64,000 nucleotides of DNA from Actinomadura sp. HBU206391. GTDB taxonomy: Bacteria > Actinomycetota > Actinomycetes > Streptosporangiales > Streptosporangiaceae. Positions 4,292 through 49,122 of the stretch are shown one piece after another. The stretch's first letter is position 1, and every line of letters starts with the position of its first letter. A program made the translations under genes and the position numbers. The DNA lies in contig NZ_JABVEB010000015.1 in assembly GCF_014323665.1 (NCBI RefSeq), forward strand, positions 1 through 64,000, in the 5' to 3' direction. A model generated the notes under the pieces. That model saw only the letters and a list, made by a program, of their open reading frames with translations. It had not been told where the DNA came from and did no database searches.

Positions 4292-5226
4292 CACCACTCG
4301 TGCACCGCGCCCTGCTGTACGGCGGGCAGGACGACATCCTCGACGTGACCGTCCCTTTCCTGCGATCCGGCCTGGAGTCCGGCGAGGCCATCCTGGCCGT
4401 CATCCCCTCGGTCCATATCGAGGCCCTGCGCGACACCTTCGGCGACGACGCCGAGGCGATGACGTTCATTGACGCCGCCGATTGGTACGAACACCCGGTG
4501 CGTACGGTCGCCGCCTACAACGACTTCGTCCACGAGGCCGCGCCACGGCGGGTGCGAGCCCTCGCCGAGCCCATCTGGCACGGGCGCTCACCTGTGCAGA
4601 CCGTGGAGTGGCAGCGCTACGAGTCGGTGGTCAATGTGGCGTTCACCGGCTTTGGAGCTCAGGTCATCTGCCTCTACGACAAGGTCCGCCTGGACAGTGA
4701 GATCATCTCCGCGGCCCTGCGTACGCACCCCGAGGTGGCCGACGGAGGTCGCCCAGGGAGCGGTGCAGCGAGGAGCAGTGACGCGTTCGTCGACCCCGCC
4801 GCCTTCAACGCCGAATGCGACTCCTCGCCGCTACCGCCGCCCGCCGGCGCCGTCGAGTCGCTGCCGATCGCGCGCGAGGACGACCTGCACGAGTTGCGGG
4901 CCTTCGTCACCGAGCGGGCACGGCGGCACCGACAGGCGGACGCCTCTCTGAGCAACCTGCTCGTCGCCGTCACTGAGATCGCCACCAATGCCCTGCGCCA
5001 CGGCACTCCGCCGGTGACCCTTCGCGTATGGGCCGAGGACACCGATCTGGTGTGCGAGGTCGCCGACCACGGACAGTGGGATCGCCACGCCCTGCTCGGT
5101 TTCCTGCCCCCGAAGTCGGCGACGGCCGGTGGCTTCGGGCTGTGGGCGGCCCGCATGCTGGTCGACGTCGCACAGGTGCGCTCCGGCGGATCCGGCACGG
5201 TCGTACGGCTCCACACCGCACTGTGA
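4288..5226 (+). CDS. MEDS-domain sensor with anti-sigma-type HATPase domain
   Basis: The 312 residues combine an N-terminal MEDS sensory domain (about 1-170) with a C-terminal RsbW-like ATP-binding domain. The N-box VTEIATNALRHGTPPV (around residue 230) and G-box regions GGFGLWAARMLVDV are visible. Such proteins usually act as serine kinases or anti-sigma factors without a transmembrane part. It is translationally coupled to the preceding MEDS-STAS gene by the ATGA overlap, suggesting that the STAS half of one protein and the kinase half of the other form an anti-sigma/anti-anti-sigma switch. No sigma factor gene lies beside it. Confidence 0.8.
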   Translation: MTPLVHRALLYGGQDDILDVTVPFLRSGLESGEAILAVIPSVHIEALRDTFGDDAEAMTFIDAADWYEHPVRTVAAYNDFVHEAAPRRVRALAEPIWHGRSPVQTVEWQRYESVVNVAFTGFGAQVICLYDKVRLDSEIISAALRTHPEVADGGRPGSGAARSSDAFVDPAAFNAECDSSPLPPPAGAVESLPIAREDDLHELRAFVTERARRHRQADASLSNLLVAVTEIATNALRHGTPPVTLRVWAEDTDLVCEVADHGQWDRHALLGFLPPKSATAGGFGLWAARMLVDVAQVRSGGSGTVVRLHTAL

Positions 5227-5953: not shown

Positions 5954-6625
5954 TCACGCCCCCGGAGTTTTCCGCCGATCCCGATCCCGGTAACGGTCGA
6001 TCACAGGTGCCAGGGCGCGGAAGGCCCGGCCCCGGTGACTGATGGCGTCCTTGTCCGCGGGCGGCAGCTCGGCCGTCGTGCGCGACTCGCCGTCGGGCAC
6101 GAACAGTGGGTCGTAGCCGAAGCCGCCGGACCCCCGGGGCGCCTCGATGACCCGCCCGTCCATCCGCCCCTCGACCACATGCTCCTCACCTGACGGCAGC
6201 ACGAACGCCGCCGCGCACGCGAAATGCGCGGTGCGGTGCCTCGCCGCCACGTCGCCGAGCTGGTCGAGCAGCAGTTCCAGGTTGGCGCGGTCCTTGTCGC
6301 CCGCGGCGTCGCCGAACCGGCCGGACCACCGGGCCGAGAGCACGCCGGGCATCCCGCCCAGAACGTCGACGCAGAGACCCGAGTCGTCGGCCACGGCGGG
6401 CAGCCCGGTGTAGGCGGCGATCGCGCGCGCCTTCAGCAGCGCGTTTCCCTCGAAGGTCAGCTCGGTCTCGGGGACCTCGGGAGCGTCGGGGAACTCCTCG
6501 AGTCCGACGACGTCGAAGACCTCGGGGCCTGGCCCGTCCACGTGGGCGGCGTCCCCGTCGCCCGCGAGGATCCGCCGCAGTTCAACGATCTTGCCCTGAT
6601 TCCGGGTGGCCAGCACGATCTTCAT
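5954..6625 (-). CDS. rdgB: RdgB/HAM1 non-canonical purine NTP pyrophosphatase
   Basis: The 223-residue enzyme hydrolyses dITP, ITP and XTP to monophosphates and so keeps deaminated purines out of DNA and RNA. Family motifs are TRNQGK at the N-terminus, [27 protein letters not shown] and SHRGRAF. The start ATG was chosen because it begins [12 protein letters not shown] and overlaps the stop of rph by 4 bases, so the two are coupled as in many actinobacteria. Sequence continuing upstream in the same frame lies inside rph. Confidence 0.95.
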
Positions 6626-7344
6626 GACCGGTCGAGGGCTTCCTTCTGAATGCGGGTCAGGTCGGCGCAGCCGCCCGCGGCGAGGTCGAGCAGCGCGTCG
6701 AGTTCGGCCCGGTCGAACGGCTGCCCCTCGGCGGTGCCCTGTACCTCGACGAACCTGCCGTCGCCGGTGCACACCACGTTCATGTCGGTCTCGGCGGTGA
6801 CGTCCTCCTCGTAGCAGAGGTCCAGCCGGGGCTGCCCGTCGACGACCCCCACACTGACCGCGGCGACCGAGGCGATCAGCGGGTCGCCCTTGACCAGCTT
6901 GCGCTCGCGCAGCCACTCGACCGCGTCGGCCAGCGCGACATATGCCCCGGTAATGGCCGCCGTACGGGTGCCGCCGTCGGCCTCGAGCACGTCGCAGTCC
7001 AAGATGATGGTGTTCTCGCCGAGCGCCTTGAAGTCGACGCAGGCCCGCAGCGATCGGCCGACCAGGCGGGAGATCTCCTGGGTGCGCCCGCCGAGCTTGC
7101 CCTTCACGGACTCACGGTCGTTGCGGGTGTTGGTGGCTCTCGGCAGCATGGCGTACTCCGCGGTGACCCAGCCGAGCCCGCTGTCGCGCCGCCACCGCGG
7201 CACATTGGTCTGCACCGACGCGGCGCAGAGCACACGGGTGCCACCGAACTCCACGAGCACCGATCCCTCCGCGTGGGAGAGCCAACCGCGCTGGATGCGG
7301 ACAGGACGGAGCTGGTCGATCGCACGACCGTCAGGGCGAGCCAT
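6622..7344 (-). CDS. rph: ribonuclease PH
   Basis: The 240-residue phosphorolytic exoribonuclease trims the 3' ends of tRNA precursors. It starts [15 protein letters not shown] and contains [11 protein letters not shown], the phosphate-binding region [28 protein letters not shown] in separate blocks, and the usual end [14 protein letters not shown] -10-like TAGGGT ends 6 bases before the ATG, so the rph-rdgB transcript may be leaderless or nearly so; a GAGGA is also present in that spacing. Confidence 0.95.
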
Positions 7345-45807: not shown

Positions 45808-46491
45808 GTGCGTCTTGTCATCGCGCGGTGCAGCGTCGACTACGTCGGCCGCCTCACCGCCCACCTCCCCATGGCCCCGCGCCTCATTCTCGTCAAGGCT
45901 GACAACTCGGTCTCGATCCACGCCGACGACCGTGCGTTCAAGCCGCTGAACTGGATGAACCCGCCCTGCACGCTCCGCGAGGAACCACCGGCGGACGGCA
46001 GCGGCGCGATCGCGCGGTGGACGGTGACCCACGGCAAGTCCGGCGAGCAGCTCATCCTCACCATCGAGGAGATACTGCACGATTCCAGCCATGAGCTGGG
46101 CCTCGACCCTGGCCTGGTCAAGGACGGCGTCGAGGCGCACCTGCAGGAACTGCTCGCGGAGCACATCACCACGCTCGGCGAGGGATGGACGCTGATCCGC
46201 CGGGAGTATCCGACCGCGATCGGGCCGGTCGACATCCTGTGCCGCGACCACAGCAGCGCGACGGTCGCCATCGAGATCAAACGACGCGGCGACATCGACG
46301 GCGTCGAGCAGCTCACCCGGTATCTCGAGCTGCTCAACCGCGATCCGCTGATCGCCCCGGTGCGGGGGATCTTCGCCGCGCAGGTGATCAAGCCGCAGGC
46401 GAAGGTACTCGCCAACGACCGCGGCATCGACTGCGTCACCCTCGACTACGACACGCTTCGCGGGATCGAGCGCGACGGCACCCTGTTCTGA
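45808..46491 (+). CDS. nucS: mismatch-specific endonuclease NucS
   Basis: The 227-residue enzyme cleaves both strands at mismatches and provides the non-canonical mismatch repair of actinobacteria. The RecB-like active site is visible: Asp142 in GPVDILC and Glu156/Lys158 in AIEIKRR. The C-terminus ends GTLF, as expected for a sliding-clamp-binding tail. The GTG start is at [16 protein letters not shown]; a TAGGGT box 8 bases before it suggests a leaderless message. Confidence 0.95.
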
Positions 46492-46569
46492 CATCGTTCT
46501 GACGACCCCGCCCACCGTCGTGGCCGTACCTGACAGAAGATGGCAGGAATGACGGAAAGGATGGCGCCC

Positions 46570-46965
46570 ATGAGCGAACATGCGAGCGGGACCTTCGATA
46601 TCACCGGCTGGGACGAGAAGGCCACCGAGGAGCGGACCGGCGCCACGATAGGGCGGGTCGGCGTCACCAAGACCTTCCACGGCGACCTGACCGGGACGAG
46701 CGCCACCGAGCTCCTGTCCCTGCACACCGAGGCCGGGCCCGCCGCCTACGTGGCACTGGAGCACGTCGAGGGCTCGCTGAACGGCCGCAGCGGAACCTTC
46801 GTCCTCCAGCACAGCGCGGGGGCCTCGGACGGGGTCCAGTGGATGAAATGGCAGATCGTGTCCACCTCGGGCACCTCGGAGCTCAAGGGTCTGCGCGGCG
46901 AGGGCCAGATCACGGTCGGGCCGGACGGCGAGCACTCCTACACCCTCGACTACGACCTGGACTGA
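46570..46965 (+). CDS. DUF3224 domain-containing protein
   Basis: The 131-residue beta-barrel-like protein begins ASGTFDITGWDEK and contains TKTFHGDLTGTS, YVALEHVEGSLNGRSGTFVLQH (in parts) and a final SYTLDYDLD, all typical of DUF3224. The ATG used lies 9 bases after AAGG; ATGs at 46549 and 46561 are alternatives. Function unknown. Confidence 0.85.
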   Translation: MSEHASGTFDITGWDEKATEERTGATIGRVGVTKTFHGDLTGTSATELLSLHTEAGPAAYVALEHVEGSLNGRSGTFVLQHSAGASDGVQWMKWQIVSTSGTSELKGLRGEGQITVGPDGEHSYTLDYDLD

Positions 46966-47024
46966 TCTCCGGCGGCCACCTCACCATGGGACCCGGCAAC
47001 CGGAGCGGCATGCCCGCTCGGGAT

Positions 47025-47109
47025 ATGTCGCTCCGGTCGGGTAGGTCGCACGGCCGCCCTGCGGTGAACGCGCGGACATCCCGCGGCGCGAACGGCCGCG
47101 TGGTCACGA
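47025..47109 (+). repeat. direct repeat copy A (partner of 48244-48334)
   Basis: This 85-bp stretch begins ATGTCGCTCCGGTC and shares CCCTGCGGTGAACGCGCG, GGCGCGA and the final GGTCACGA with copy B. It ends over the stop codon of the minus-strand gene beside it. Confidence 0.75.
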
Positions 47110-48111
47110 ACAGCGCCAGAGCCACAGACACTTGGCACTTCGCTTGGGAGCCTTCTGAGCGGCGTCCCATTCGTTGCCGAGACGCTCGCTGTTGAGCTGC
47201 GTCACCGCATCGAGCACCGCCTTCCGCCCAGCCTCGCCACCCAGCCGTCGTTCTTCGTCGGTCAGCGACAAAGAGTCGTTGGTGGCTTTCTTGAAGGCGG
47301 TGACATAGGTCTCCAGATAGGGCGGCGTTCCTTTTATTTCAGGGAGATTTGCGCGCATTATTCGGGCGTATGTCGAGGCGATGAGGTAACCGTTCTGCGC
47401 GTTATAGAAATCCGCCAGATGATTCACGCTCTGCTCGATATATTCCTCGCGCGACACGTCGTTCGCATCGAGGCCCTTTTTCTTGGGCGGTTCGACCAGA
47501 TCCGCGAGGGCTCTCTGCCGAGTAGCCTCTCGCTCATGGGGCGGGGTCATCACATCGAGGATGATCTCTCGTTTCGCCTTATCGTAGTCATTGCCGGTGC
47601 CGATTCGCCAGCGAGTCGTGAAGCCGGCCTTCAACTGCCATTCCAGGAATGGTTTTCCGCTCGGCTCGTGCCAACCGGCGATGTCTGCCTTCGCTATCCC
47701 TTCATAGTACCGGGCCGCCTTGAACTGCGCCTCGAACTGCTTGTTCCAGTACTCTGGGTCGAATTCCGGTGGTGGGGACTCCCCTGGCGGTGCCAGCAGG
47801 GCCTTTCGGTCCTTCAACTTCAAGATCTTGTTTGCTCCTCCACCCCCCGTGGGAACTTTGGGCGCCGGGCTCGTCGGGGCGACCGCGGGGACGGCCACCG
47901 GCCGGCCGCCGGTGGGCACGCAGTCGTTCTGCCCGACCCGGCATACCGCTTTCTCGATGCTGGAGGCCACAGCGCTACCTACGCCGCTGGCGACAAAGGC
48001 GGCGGCGACGACCGCCACGAGCAGGACGATGCTCAGATATGATACGGAGCCGTCACCTGTTTCCCGGAGATTGCCTTTTTCCACACAACGCCGTCGTACA
48101 AATTCCCGCAT
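47104..48111 (-). CDS. secreted Flp/TadE-like pilin-type protein of unknown function
   Basis: The 335-residue product has a basic start, then TGDGSVSYLSIVLLVAVVAA with a hydrophobic helix (about 20-48) and KAVCRVGQNDC. This N-terminal layout resembles Flp/TadE-like pilins and secreted proteins built on the same module. A Pro/Gly linker and a soluble domain of about 230 residues follow, with WHEPSGKPFLEWQLKAGF and TRWRIGTGNDYDKAK, ending in AKCLWLWRCS. Many codons end in A or T, unlike the neighbours. It lies between two direct repeats, and its stop codon is inside copy A. No immunity or secretion gene is adjacent. Confidence 0.6.
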   Translation of the reverse strand: MREFVRRRCVEKGNLRETGDGSVSYLSIVLLVAVVAAAFVASGVGSAVASSIEKAVCRVGQNDCVPTGGRPVAVPAVAPTSPAPKVPTGGGGANKILKLKDRKALLAPPGESPPPEFDPEYWNKQFEAQFKAARYYEGIAKADIAGWHEPSGKPFLEWQLKAGFTTRWRIGTGNDYDKAKREIILDVMTPPHEREATRQRALADLVEPPKKKGLDANDVSREEYIEQSVNHLADFYNAQNGYLIASTYARIMRANLPEIKGTPPYLETYVTAFKKATNDSLSLTDEERRLGGEAGRKAVLDAVTQLNSERLGNEWDAAQKAPKRSAKCLWLWRCS

Positions 48112-48243
48112 ATGCGTACGGTATTGGTCCCGATGAATGCCGTCGCAGGGCCCGGGGACCCAAGTCAAGGCCCTTCTTGCCCGGCGCGCGTTCAGGCACC
48201 GCCCGGCCGAACCGCCGGCACCCCGTACCGAGAGGGCTGGGGC

Positions 48244-48334
48244 ATGTCGCCCCGGTCTGGTACGGGACACGGGTACCCTGCGGTGAACGCGCGTGATCGC
48301 TCGATCGGCGCGAGAAGCGAGAGAAGGGTCACGA
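48244..48334 (+). repeat. direct repeat copy B, containing the leader of the M50 gene
   Basis: The 91-bp copy starts ATGTCGCCCCGGTC and ends GGTCACGA. It includes the AGAAGGG ribosome binding sequence and the first base of the M50 protease ATG. Confidence 0.75.
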
Positions 48335-49122
48335 TGGGATCGGTGCACGAGTTGCGGGGGAGCCGCGCGAACGTACGGCTCAGCCCGGTGTTCATCGCCA
48401 TCGTCGCGGCCACCGTGCTGTGCGGCTTGATCGTCTGGCGCTACGGCAACATCGTGGAGAGACCGGCTCGGCTCGCGCTGTTCGGCTTCGTGGCGGGGGC
48501 CTGGATCGTCTCGCTCTGCCTGCACGAGTTCGGCCACGCCTTCTTCGCCTACCGTTCGGGCGACGACAGCATCGCCACCAAGGGCTATCTGACACTGAAC
48601 CCGCTGAAGTACGCCGACCCGATCCTGAGCTTCGCGATCCCGGTGCTCTTCATGCTGATCGGCGGAATCGGCCTGCCCGGAGGCGCGATCTGGATCGAGC
48701 GAGGGAAGATCCGCGGCCGGCTCCGGCACAGTCTCATCTCGGCGGCGGGCCCGCTCGCCAACCTCGCCTTCGCACTCATACTCGCGTTCGTCGTCAAGAT
48801 CCTTGCCGAGGACGACCACCGGATCTTCTGGTCCGGGCTCGCCTTCCTCACATTCCTGCAGGTGACCGCGGCGCTGCTCAACCTGCTGCCGATCCCCGGC
48901 CTGGACGGATTCGGCATCATCGAGCCCTACCTGCCCCGGGAATGGGCACGCAAGGCGAGCGAGATCGGCGGCTATGCCTTTTTCATCCTGATCGCTCTGC
49001 TCTGGCTCGGACCGATCAACCGCGTGTTCTTCGACGCGATCTACACCCTCACCGACGCGCTCGGCATCGGCCGCCTGCCGATCGAACTGGGTCACCTGCT
49101 CTTCCAGTTCTGGAAGAACTGA
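48334..49122 (+). CDS. site-2 protease family (M50) membrane metallopeptidase
   Basis: The 262-residue intramembrane protease has the zinc motif HEFGH (64-68) and the third ligand in NLLPIPGLDGF. Around six hydrophobic helices are present, and an N-terminal tail precedes the first. The start is the ATG after AGAAGGG; a longer frame reaching 48112 runs through the repeat and is not supported. Substrates might be anti-sigma factors or lipoprotein remnants; none is indicated by context. Confidence 0.87.
   Translation: MGSVHELRGSRANVRLSPVFIAIVAATVLCGLIVWRYGNIVERPARLALFGFVAGAWIVSLCLHEFGHAFFAYRSGDDSIATKGYLTLNPLKYADPILSFAIPVLFMLIGGIGLPGGAIWIERGKIRGRLRHSLISAAGPLANLAFALILAFVVKILAEDDHRIFWSGLAFLTFLQVTAALLNLLPIPGLDGFGIIEPYLPREWARKASEIGGYAFFILIALLWLGPINRVFFDAIYTLTDALGIGRLPIELGHLLFQFWKN

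What the first reader, a model, noticed from the sequence alone, without database searches (positions are those of the whole stretch)
47025..48334. Pilin-like gene flanked by 85-91 bp imperfect direct repeats, one carrying the leader of the next gene
Copies A and B share long identical blocks (CCCTGCGGTGAACGCGCG among them) and both end in GGTCACGA. Copy B includes the ribosome binding site of the M50 protease, while copy A ends in the stop codon of the inverted gene between them. The enclosed gene has more A/T-ending codons. The picture is an inserted or recombined cargo gene at the leader of the protease gene, without any transposase.
Basis: partly seen in the sequence, partly recalled or inferred. 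Interest (0 to 1): 0.72.

Follow-up and report, generated by a model that had tools for sequence, protein, structure and literature searches.

The report
Pilin-fused effector gene inserted beside protease
A foreign-looking gene sits between two copies of a neighbouring gene's start region; it belongs to a set of about 36 genes in this actinomycete that fuse a pilus-protein head to different, often toxin-like, enzyme tails and share a switch sequence with one pilus-assembly operon.

Summary
Repeats are real but shorter than claimed: a firm 55-bp block (80%; 47020-47074 / 48239-48293), then a weak 36-41 bp tail. Only these two places in the 8.2-Mb genome match. Copy B is the promoter/leader of the M50 protease gene; copy A is a decayed duplicate. 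The sister species and about 40 related M50 loci show one leader; the sister has neither copy A nor the enclosed gene, which is strongly atypical (GC3 0.72 against 0.90 +/- 0.04). Insertion or recombination at the leader is supported; its molecular mechanism is not resolved. The cargo is more interesting than the scar. The gene is one of about 36 in this genome sharing a prepilin-type N-terminus (invariant Gly, Cys pair) and a Pro-rich linker, with varying C-terminal modules (DUF6782 metallopeptidase, ADP-ribosyltransferase, calpain, lipase, PI3/4-kinase-like, HINT). Most carry a 7-2-7 inverted-repeat promoter motif that also precedes the 75-aa pilin and the operon of one Tad (Flp) system carrying its own kinase/NarL-type regulator. 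The window protein is a DUF6782-type member without the HExxH site. I infer a Tad-linked arsenal of modular-pilin effectors; secretion and toxicity are untested.

The parts
47020..47074 (+). repeat copy A, firm core: decayed duplicate of the M50 leader (its -10-like TACCCT is changed to CGCCCT)
47075..47110 (+). weak tail of copy A, ending in GGTCACGA; overlaps the stop codon and 3' flank of the inverted gene
   Evidence: p 0.01 with, 0.12 without the last 8 nt
46990..47014 (-). possible remnant of the 5' end of the gene that lies next to the leader in the sister genome (about 17 of 20 nt alike); suggestive only
   Evidence: (p 0.0044 by shuffling)
47104..48111 (-). 335-aa modular-pilin effector-like gene: prepilin-type N-terminus, Pro-rich linker, DUF6782-type C-terminal domain without HExxH
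48118..48123 (-). TACCGT, candidate -10 element 6 nt before the ATG (leaderless transcript inferred)
48142..48163 (-). Tad/effector regulon motif TTGGGTCCCCGGGCCCTGCGAC, 21.1 bits
48239..48293 (+). repeat copy B, firm core: M50 promoter/leader with TACCCT
48294..48333 (+). rest of the M50 leader with ribosome binding site AGAGAAGGG (48320-48328)
48334..49122 (+). M50 family metalloprotease gene
46540..46965 (+). DUF3224 gene, conserved left neighbour
45808..46491 (+). NucS endonuclease gene, conserved neighbour

Best explanation
In the lineage of this genome, after its split from the sister species, a gene of the Tad-linked modular-pilin effector family, with its own promoter, was inserted at the leader of the M50 protease gene. 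The event left one leader copy on each side: B, still in use by M50, and A, decaying. Shown: the duplication, its uniqueness in the genome, its absence in the sister, the foreign composition, the family membership, the shared promoter motif with a Tad operon. Inferred: the event was integration of an incoming DNA that carried or duplicated the leader (homologous recombination at the leader, or repair of a staggered break by end joining with capture), not transposition. Inferred function of the cargo: the N-terminal pilin module is cut by a prepilin peptidase and used by the Tad machinery of contig C73 to display or release the C-terminal domain; here that domain descends from a zinc peptidase but lost its catalytic residues, so binding, decoy or immunity-like action is more likely than proteolysis.
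For: Repeat core and uniqueness. Sister genome: single leader, no cargo. At 55 columns A agrees with B against the sister at 10 sites and with the sister against B at 2, so the duplication is younger than the split or A and B come from one close source. GC3 and GC of the cargo about 4 sd low. Family: about 36 N-terminal hits in own genome, full-length paralogue 42% identical on C124; invariant G19, C57, C64; varied Pfam domains PT-HINT, Peptidase_C2, ADPrib_exo_Tox, PI3_PI4_kinase, Lipase_2, DUF6782. C-terminal domain against DUF6782-type paralogues: hhalign 98.9%, E 1.8e-17, HExxH and EE ligand invariant in those and absent here. Regulon motif: about 30 of 36 promoters, 1 hit above 13 bits in 520 kb of background, present in related genera not used to build it. 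Tad operon with RcpC, CpaE-like, TadE, T2SSE, two T2SSF, HisKA_3 kinase, LuxR-type regulator, and a 75-aa pilin of the same N-terminal type behind a 20.6-bit motif.
Against: Only one sister genome covers the site; G002 lacks the M50 gene or contig. A and B are 20% diverged and only 55 bp are firm, so an exact target-site duplication cannot be shown. The E at +5 of canonical Flp pilins is Ser in the window protein. No secretion, toxicity or immunity evidence; no immunity-like gene adjoins. The structure model was useless (pLDDT 39.5).
Confidence: 0.68

Rival explanations
1. The leader was duplicated first, as a promoter duplication or remnant of a tandem M50 duplication, and the effector gene entered the spacer or replaced the extra M50 copy later.
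For: A tandem M50 pair exists in Actinomadura xylanilytica (L099). Copy A shows decay, as an abandoned promoter would.
Against: No M50 coding remnant follows copy A; the effector stop codon lies in its very end. No relative has two leaders without cargo.
Confidence: 0.17
2. Transposon-like mobilisation with a long target-site duplication, mediated in trans by a lost or distant recombinase.
For: The topology leader-insert-leader resembles a target-site duplication; an IS701-like transposase lies next to the closest paralogue on C124 (by inspection).
Against: No terminal inverted repeats at the borders, no transposase in the insert. Copies are not identical and far longer than usual duplications. 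The other family members lack flanking repeats of this kind; the C124 repeats are copies of the promoter motif.
Confidence: 0.06
3. The two copies are unrelated promoters sharing regulator sites.
For: Part of the identical block is a -10-like element with flanks (GTACCCTGCGGTG), and promoter sharing explains the repeats at the paralogue C124.
Against: Similarity extends over 55 bp without gaps and copy A has no gene to drive: it lies between convergent genes and lost TACCCT. The regulon motif is in neither copy (best 2.7 bits).
Confidence: 0.09

Closest known systems
Modular type IV pilins (PilB of Streptococcus sanguinis; Raynaud et al. 2021, PMC8179133)
   Same: A functional module joined to an N-terminal pilin module; widespread and diverse; one architecture with a peptidase is listed there
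   Different: Here the module is a Tad/Flp-type N-terminus with a Cys pair and the C-terminal part varies across about 36 paralogues of one genome, several of them toxin-type enzymes, under one promoter motif
Tad (Kil) pilus with adaptable tips of Myxococcus xanthus (PMC12075869, PMC8460266)
   Same: Tad machinery with variable minor pilins carrying extra domains, used against other cells
   Different: Kil tips are four heterotrimeric minor-pilin sets whose own toxicity is unproven; here dozens of single pilin-enzyme fusions in a monoderm actinomycete, killing untested
Polymorphic toxin systems (Zhang et al. 2012, PMC3482391)
   Same: Constant N-terminal trafficking part, variable C-terminal toxin-type domains including PT-HINT, ADP-ribosyltransferase, peptidases
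   Different: That survey's text does not contain the word pilin; no immunity gene was found beside the window gene
DUF6782 putative metallopeptidase family (PF20573)
   Same: The C-terminal domain is homologous to paralogues that hit PF20573
   Different: The window protein itself does not hit the model and lacks HExxH

Membership tests
Modular type IV (Tad/Flp) pilin | prepilin peptidase site: Gly before a hydrophobic helix | tested here: met
   G19 and G21 invariant in 28 sequences including the 75-aa pilin of the Tad operon; hydrophobic stretch follows
Modular type IV (Tad/Flp) pilin | Glu at +5 and Tyr at +6 | tested here: not met
   Tyr present; +5 is Ser in the window protein and most paralogues, Glu in a subset
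Modular type IV (Tad/Flp) pilin | additional module behind the pilin part | tested here: met
Modular type IV (Tad/Flp) pilin | incorporation into, or export by, the filament machinery | not testable with these tools
   only indirect: shared promoter motif with a Tad operon and its pilin
Polymorphic toxin family | constant N-terminus with variable toxin-type C-termini across paralogues | tested here: met
Polymorphic toxin family | adjacent immunity gene | tested here: not met
   window gene lies between convergent DUF3224 and divergent M50 genes; not surveyed for the paralogues
DUF6782 metallopeptidase | profile match | tested here: inconclusive
   no direct Pfam match; hhalign to DUF6782-type paralogues 98.9%, E 1.8e-17
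DUF6782 metallopeptidase | HExxH zinc site | tested here: not met
   absent in window protein, invariant in L061, L051, L055
Transposon insertion with target-site duplication | transposase and terminal inverted repeats | tested here: not met
Transposon insertion with target-site duplication | identical short direct repeats | tested here: not met
   55 bp at 80% identity
Integron cassette | recurrent attC-like sites | tested here: not met
   repeat occurs only twice in the genome

The most novel reading that the evidence does not exclude
A Tad (Flp) pilus system of Streptosporangiales actinomycetes displays or releases a large set of pilin-fused polymorphic effectors, switched on together by the kinase/NarL-type regulator in its own operon through the TTGGGYCY-N2-GGRCCCTGTC motif; member genes enter and leave genomes rapidly by recombination, the window gene being one insertion caught with its scar.
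Probability: 0.45. Interest if true: 0.85.

Novelty: new variant of a known kind. Interest (0 to 1): 0.6.

Why it matters
The scar is a datable example of gain of one gene at a conserved locus without a recombinase. The cargo points to a trafficking route for polymorphic effectors that I did not find described in the papers searched: a Tad-pilin head on varied enzyme tails, in up to dozens of copies per genome and in 25 of 70 sampled genera of the order (some of these hits are plain pilins). The shared promoter motif gives a direct handle: one regulator and one ATPase gene can be deleted to test the whole set at once.

Tried and rejected
Flanking repeats as a general insertion signature of the family: rejected; only the window gene, the paralogue on C124 and a tandem array exceed controls, and the C124 repeats are two copies of the promoter motif. 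The motif in leader A or B: absent. Genome-wide family of GTACCCTGCGGTGAA sites: not above the control pattern in an informative way (16 against 8, mostly two-mismatch coding matches). Hairpins at A and B: no better than shuffles. Empty-site comparison at C124: left flank matches the sister but the right side is an insertion sequence, so undecided. Ancestral status of the sister's 182-aa gene: it has one weak homologue in 120 relatives, so it may itself be a gain, and the remnant beside copy A stays suggestive. Single-sequence structure prediction: pLDDT 39.5, not used for a fold search. PDB sequence search and PADLOC: nothing. G002 could not serve as a second sister: its NucS gene lies at a contig end and no M50 gene was found.

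Full report
Observation. The window carries NucS (45808-46491), DUF3224 (46540-46965), an inverted gene (47104-48111, minus) and an M50 protease gene (48334-49122). Two direct repeats flank the inverted gene. The firm part is 55 nt at 80% identity, 47020-47074 and 48239-48293. Searched with the M50 leader, the own genome (8.24 Mb, 586 contigs) gives copy A at E 4.6e-7 and then nothing better than E 0.13. The flank-to-flank score is 55, against a maximum of 31 for 128 control genes. The closing octamer may be chance or a microhomology.

Empty site. In the sister genome G001 (M50 90% identical) the interval holds an unrelated 182-aa gene, one leader, no copy A and no effector gene. In related Actinomadura, Thermomonospora and Actinoallomurus loci the order NucS-DUF3224-M50 is kept in most, with the pilin-like gene in none of the 42 loci or the sister; 41 loci scored have no second leader of comparable strength. 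Across the 55 columns A and B agree against the sister at 10 sites, A and sister against B at 2, B and sister against A at 6: A is the copy that drifted, and A and B share a more recent origin than either with the sister. Copy A has lost the TACCCT that B and the sister keep. Left of copy A a 20-nt stretch resembles the 5' end of the sister's 182-aa gene (about 17 of 20; p 0.0044), which would put copy A in the old left context. That gene is rare (one weak homologue in 120 relatives), so I treat this as suggestive.

Composition. The inverted gene has GC 0.61 and GC3 0.719, against 0.703 +/- 0.023 and 0.896 +/- 0.040 for 61 window genes. Family members elsewhere in the genome are also low (GC3 mean 0.783), so low GC is a family trait and not proof of recent arrival.

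What the cargo is. A search of the own genome returns many paralogues; after fetching them I count about 36 genes or fragments with the N-terminal part, the best a full-length paralogue at 42% on contig C124. The N-terminus has an invariant Gly (G19), a hydrophobic helix and a Cys pair (C57, C64), then a Pro-rich linker. C-terminal parts differ: DUF6782, PT-HINT, calpain-type Peptidase_C2, ADP-ribosyltransferase, PI3/4-kinase-like, class 2 lipase, a weak GDPD-like match. The window protein has no direct Pfam match, but its domain aligns with the DUF6782-type paralogues by hhalign (98.9%, E 1.8e-17). Those keep HExxH and a downstream EE; the window protein and its nearest paralogues do not. It is most likely a pseudo-peptidase.

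Regulon and machinery. Aligning promoters gave a motif TTGGGYCY-N2-GGRCCCTGTC, roughly a 7-2-7 inverted repeat, in about 30 of 36 members, typically some 100-110 nt before the G19 codon and often followed by a TAnnnT box 6 nt before the start. The window gene has it at 48142-48163 (21.1 bits). The background of 520 kb from related genomes has one hit above 13 bits; random 180-bp stretches exceed 10.7 bits once in a thousand; family members in several other genera, not used in the model, reach 14-24 bits, while members in more distant genera lack it. The motif also precedes a gene with a TadE/G-like and an NlpC/P60 domain and a 75-aa pilin whose N-terminus is of the same type (20.6 bits). That pilin follows, on contig C73, an operon with RcpC/CpaB, a CpaE-like ATPase, TadE, T2SSE, two T2SSF proteins, a HisKA_3 kinase and a LuxR/NarL-type response regulator, with weaker motif matches at its head (14-15 bits). 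Two other Tad loci have ordinary Flp pilins and no motif. That the C73 regulator binds the motif is inference; NarL-type regulators are known to bind 7-2-7 inverted repeats (own knowledge).

Distribution. With the N-terminal profile 95 of 347 genomes and 25 of 70 genera of the order match; counts per genome are capped at 16 and some matches are short pilins.

Mechanism. Shown: duplication of the leader, its lineage restriction, insertion of a foreign-type gene between the copies. Inferred: integration by recombination or end joining with duplication of the leader. A classical transposon is unlikely: no transposase, no terminal inverted repeats, long imperfect repeats, and no such repeats at the other family members. 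Function: inferred as a Tad-handled modular pilin whose C-terminal domain acts outside the cell; neither export nor toxicity has been tested.

Comparison with the known. The nearest published ideas are modular type IV pilins (PMC8179133), the Kil Tad pilus with variable tips (PMC12075869, PMC8460266) and polymorphic toxins (PMC3482391, whose text does not mention pilins). I found no description of pilin-fused polymorphic effectors under a Tad regulon in the searched library, which is incomplete. I rate this a new variant of a known kind.

Noticed in passing
G000 contig C73 (L225:1170-12370): Complete Tad operon with its own HisKA_3 kinase and NarL-type regulator, followed by a 75-aa pilin whose N-terminus matches the effector family; same promoter motif.
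   Followed up: yes
L055:2514-3725 (G000 contig C24): Protein with a TadE/G-like N-terminus fused to an NlpC/P60 domain behind a 21.6-bit copy of the regulon motif; could open a path through the wall for the pilus.
   Followed up: partly
L049 (G000:C552:9000-14000): Tandem array of several full and fragmentary members of the effector family, suggesting local duplication and decay.
   Followed up: partly
L063:2482-2732 and 4750-5000: A 251-bp direct repeat (76%) flanks the GDPD-like family member at a greater distance; probably duplicated neighbouring genes.
   Followed up: no
L099:2691-3476 and 6001-6783: Tandem pair of M50 protease genes in Actinomadura xylanilytica at the equivalent locus.
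   Followed up: no
L201 (G000:C35:78427): A 23-bit copy of the regulon motif in front of what looks like a small secreted protein without the pilin N-terminus; candidate further regulon member.
   Followed up: no
G000 against G001: The genome of the window holds about 36 family members, its sister species only about 3: strong lineage-specific expansion or loss.
   Followed up: partly
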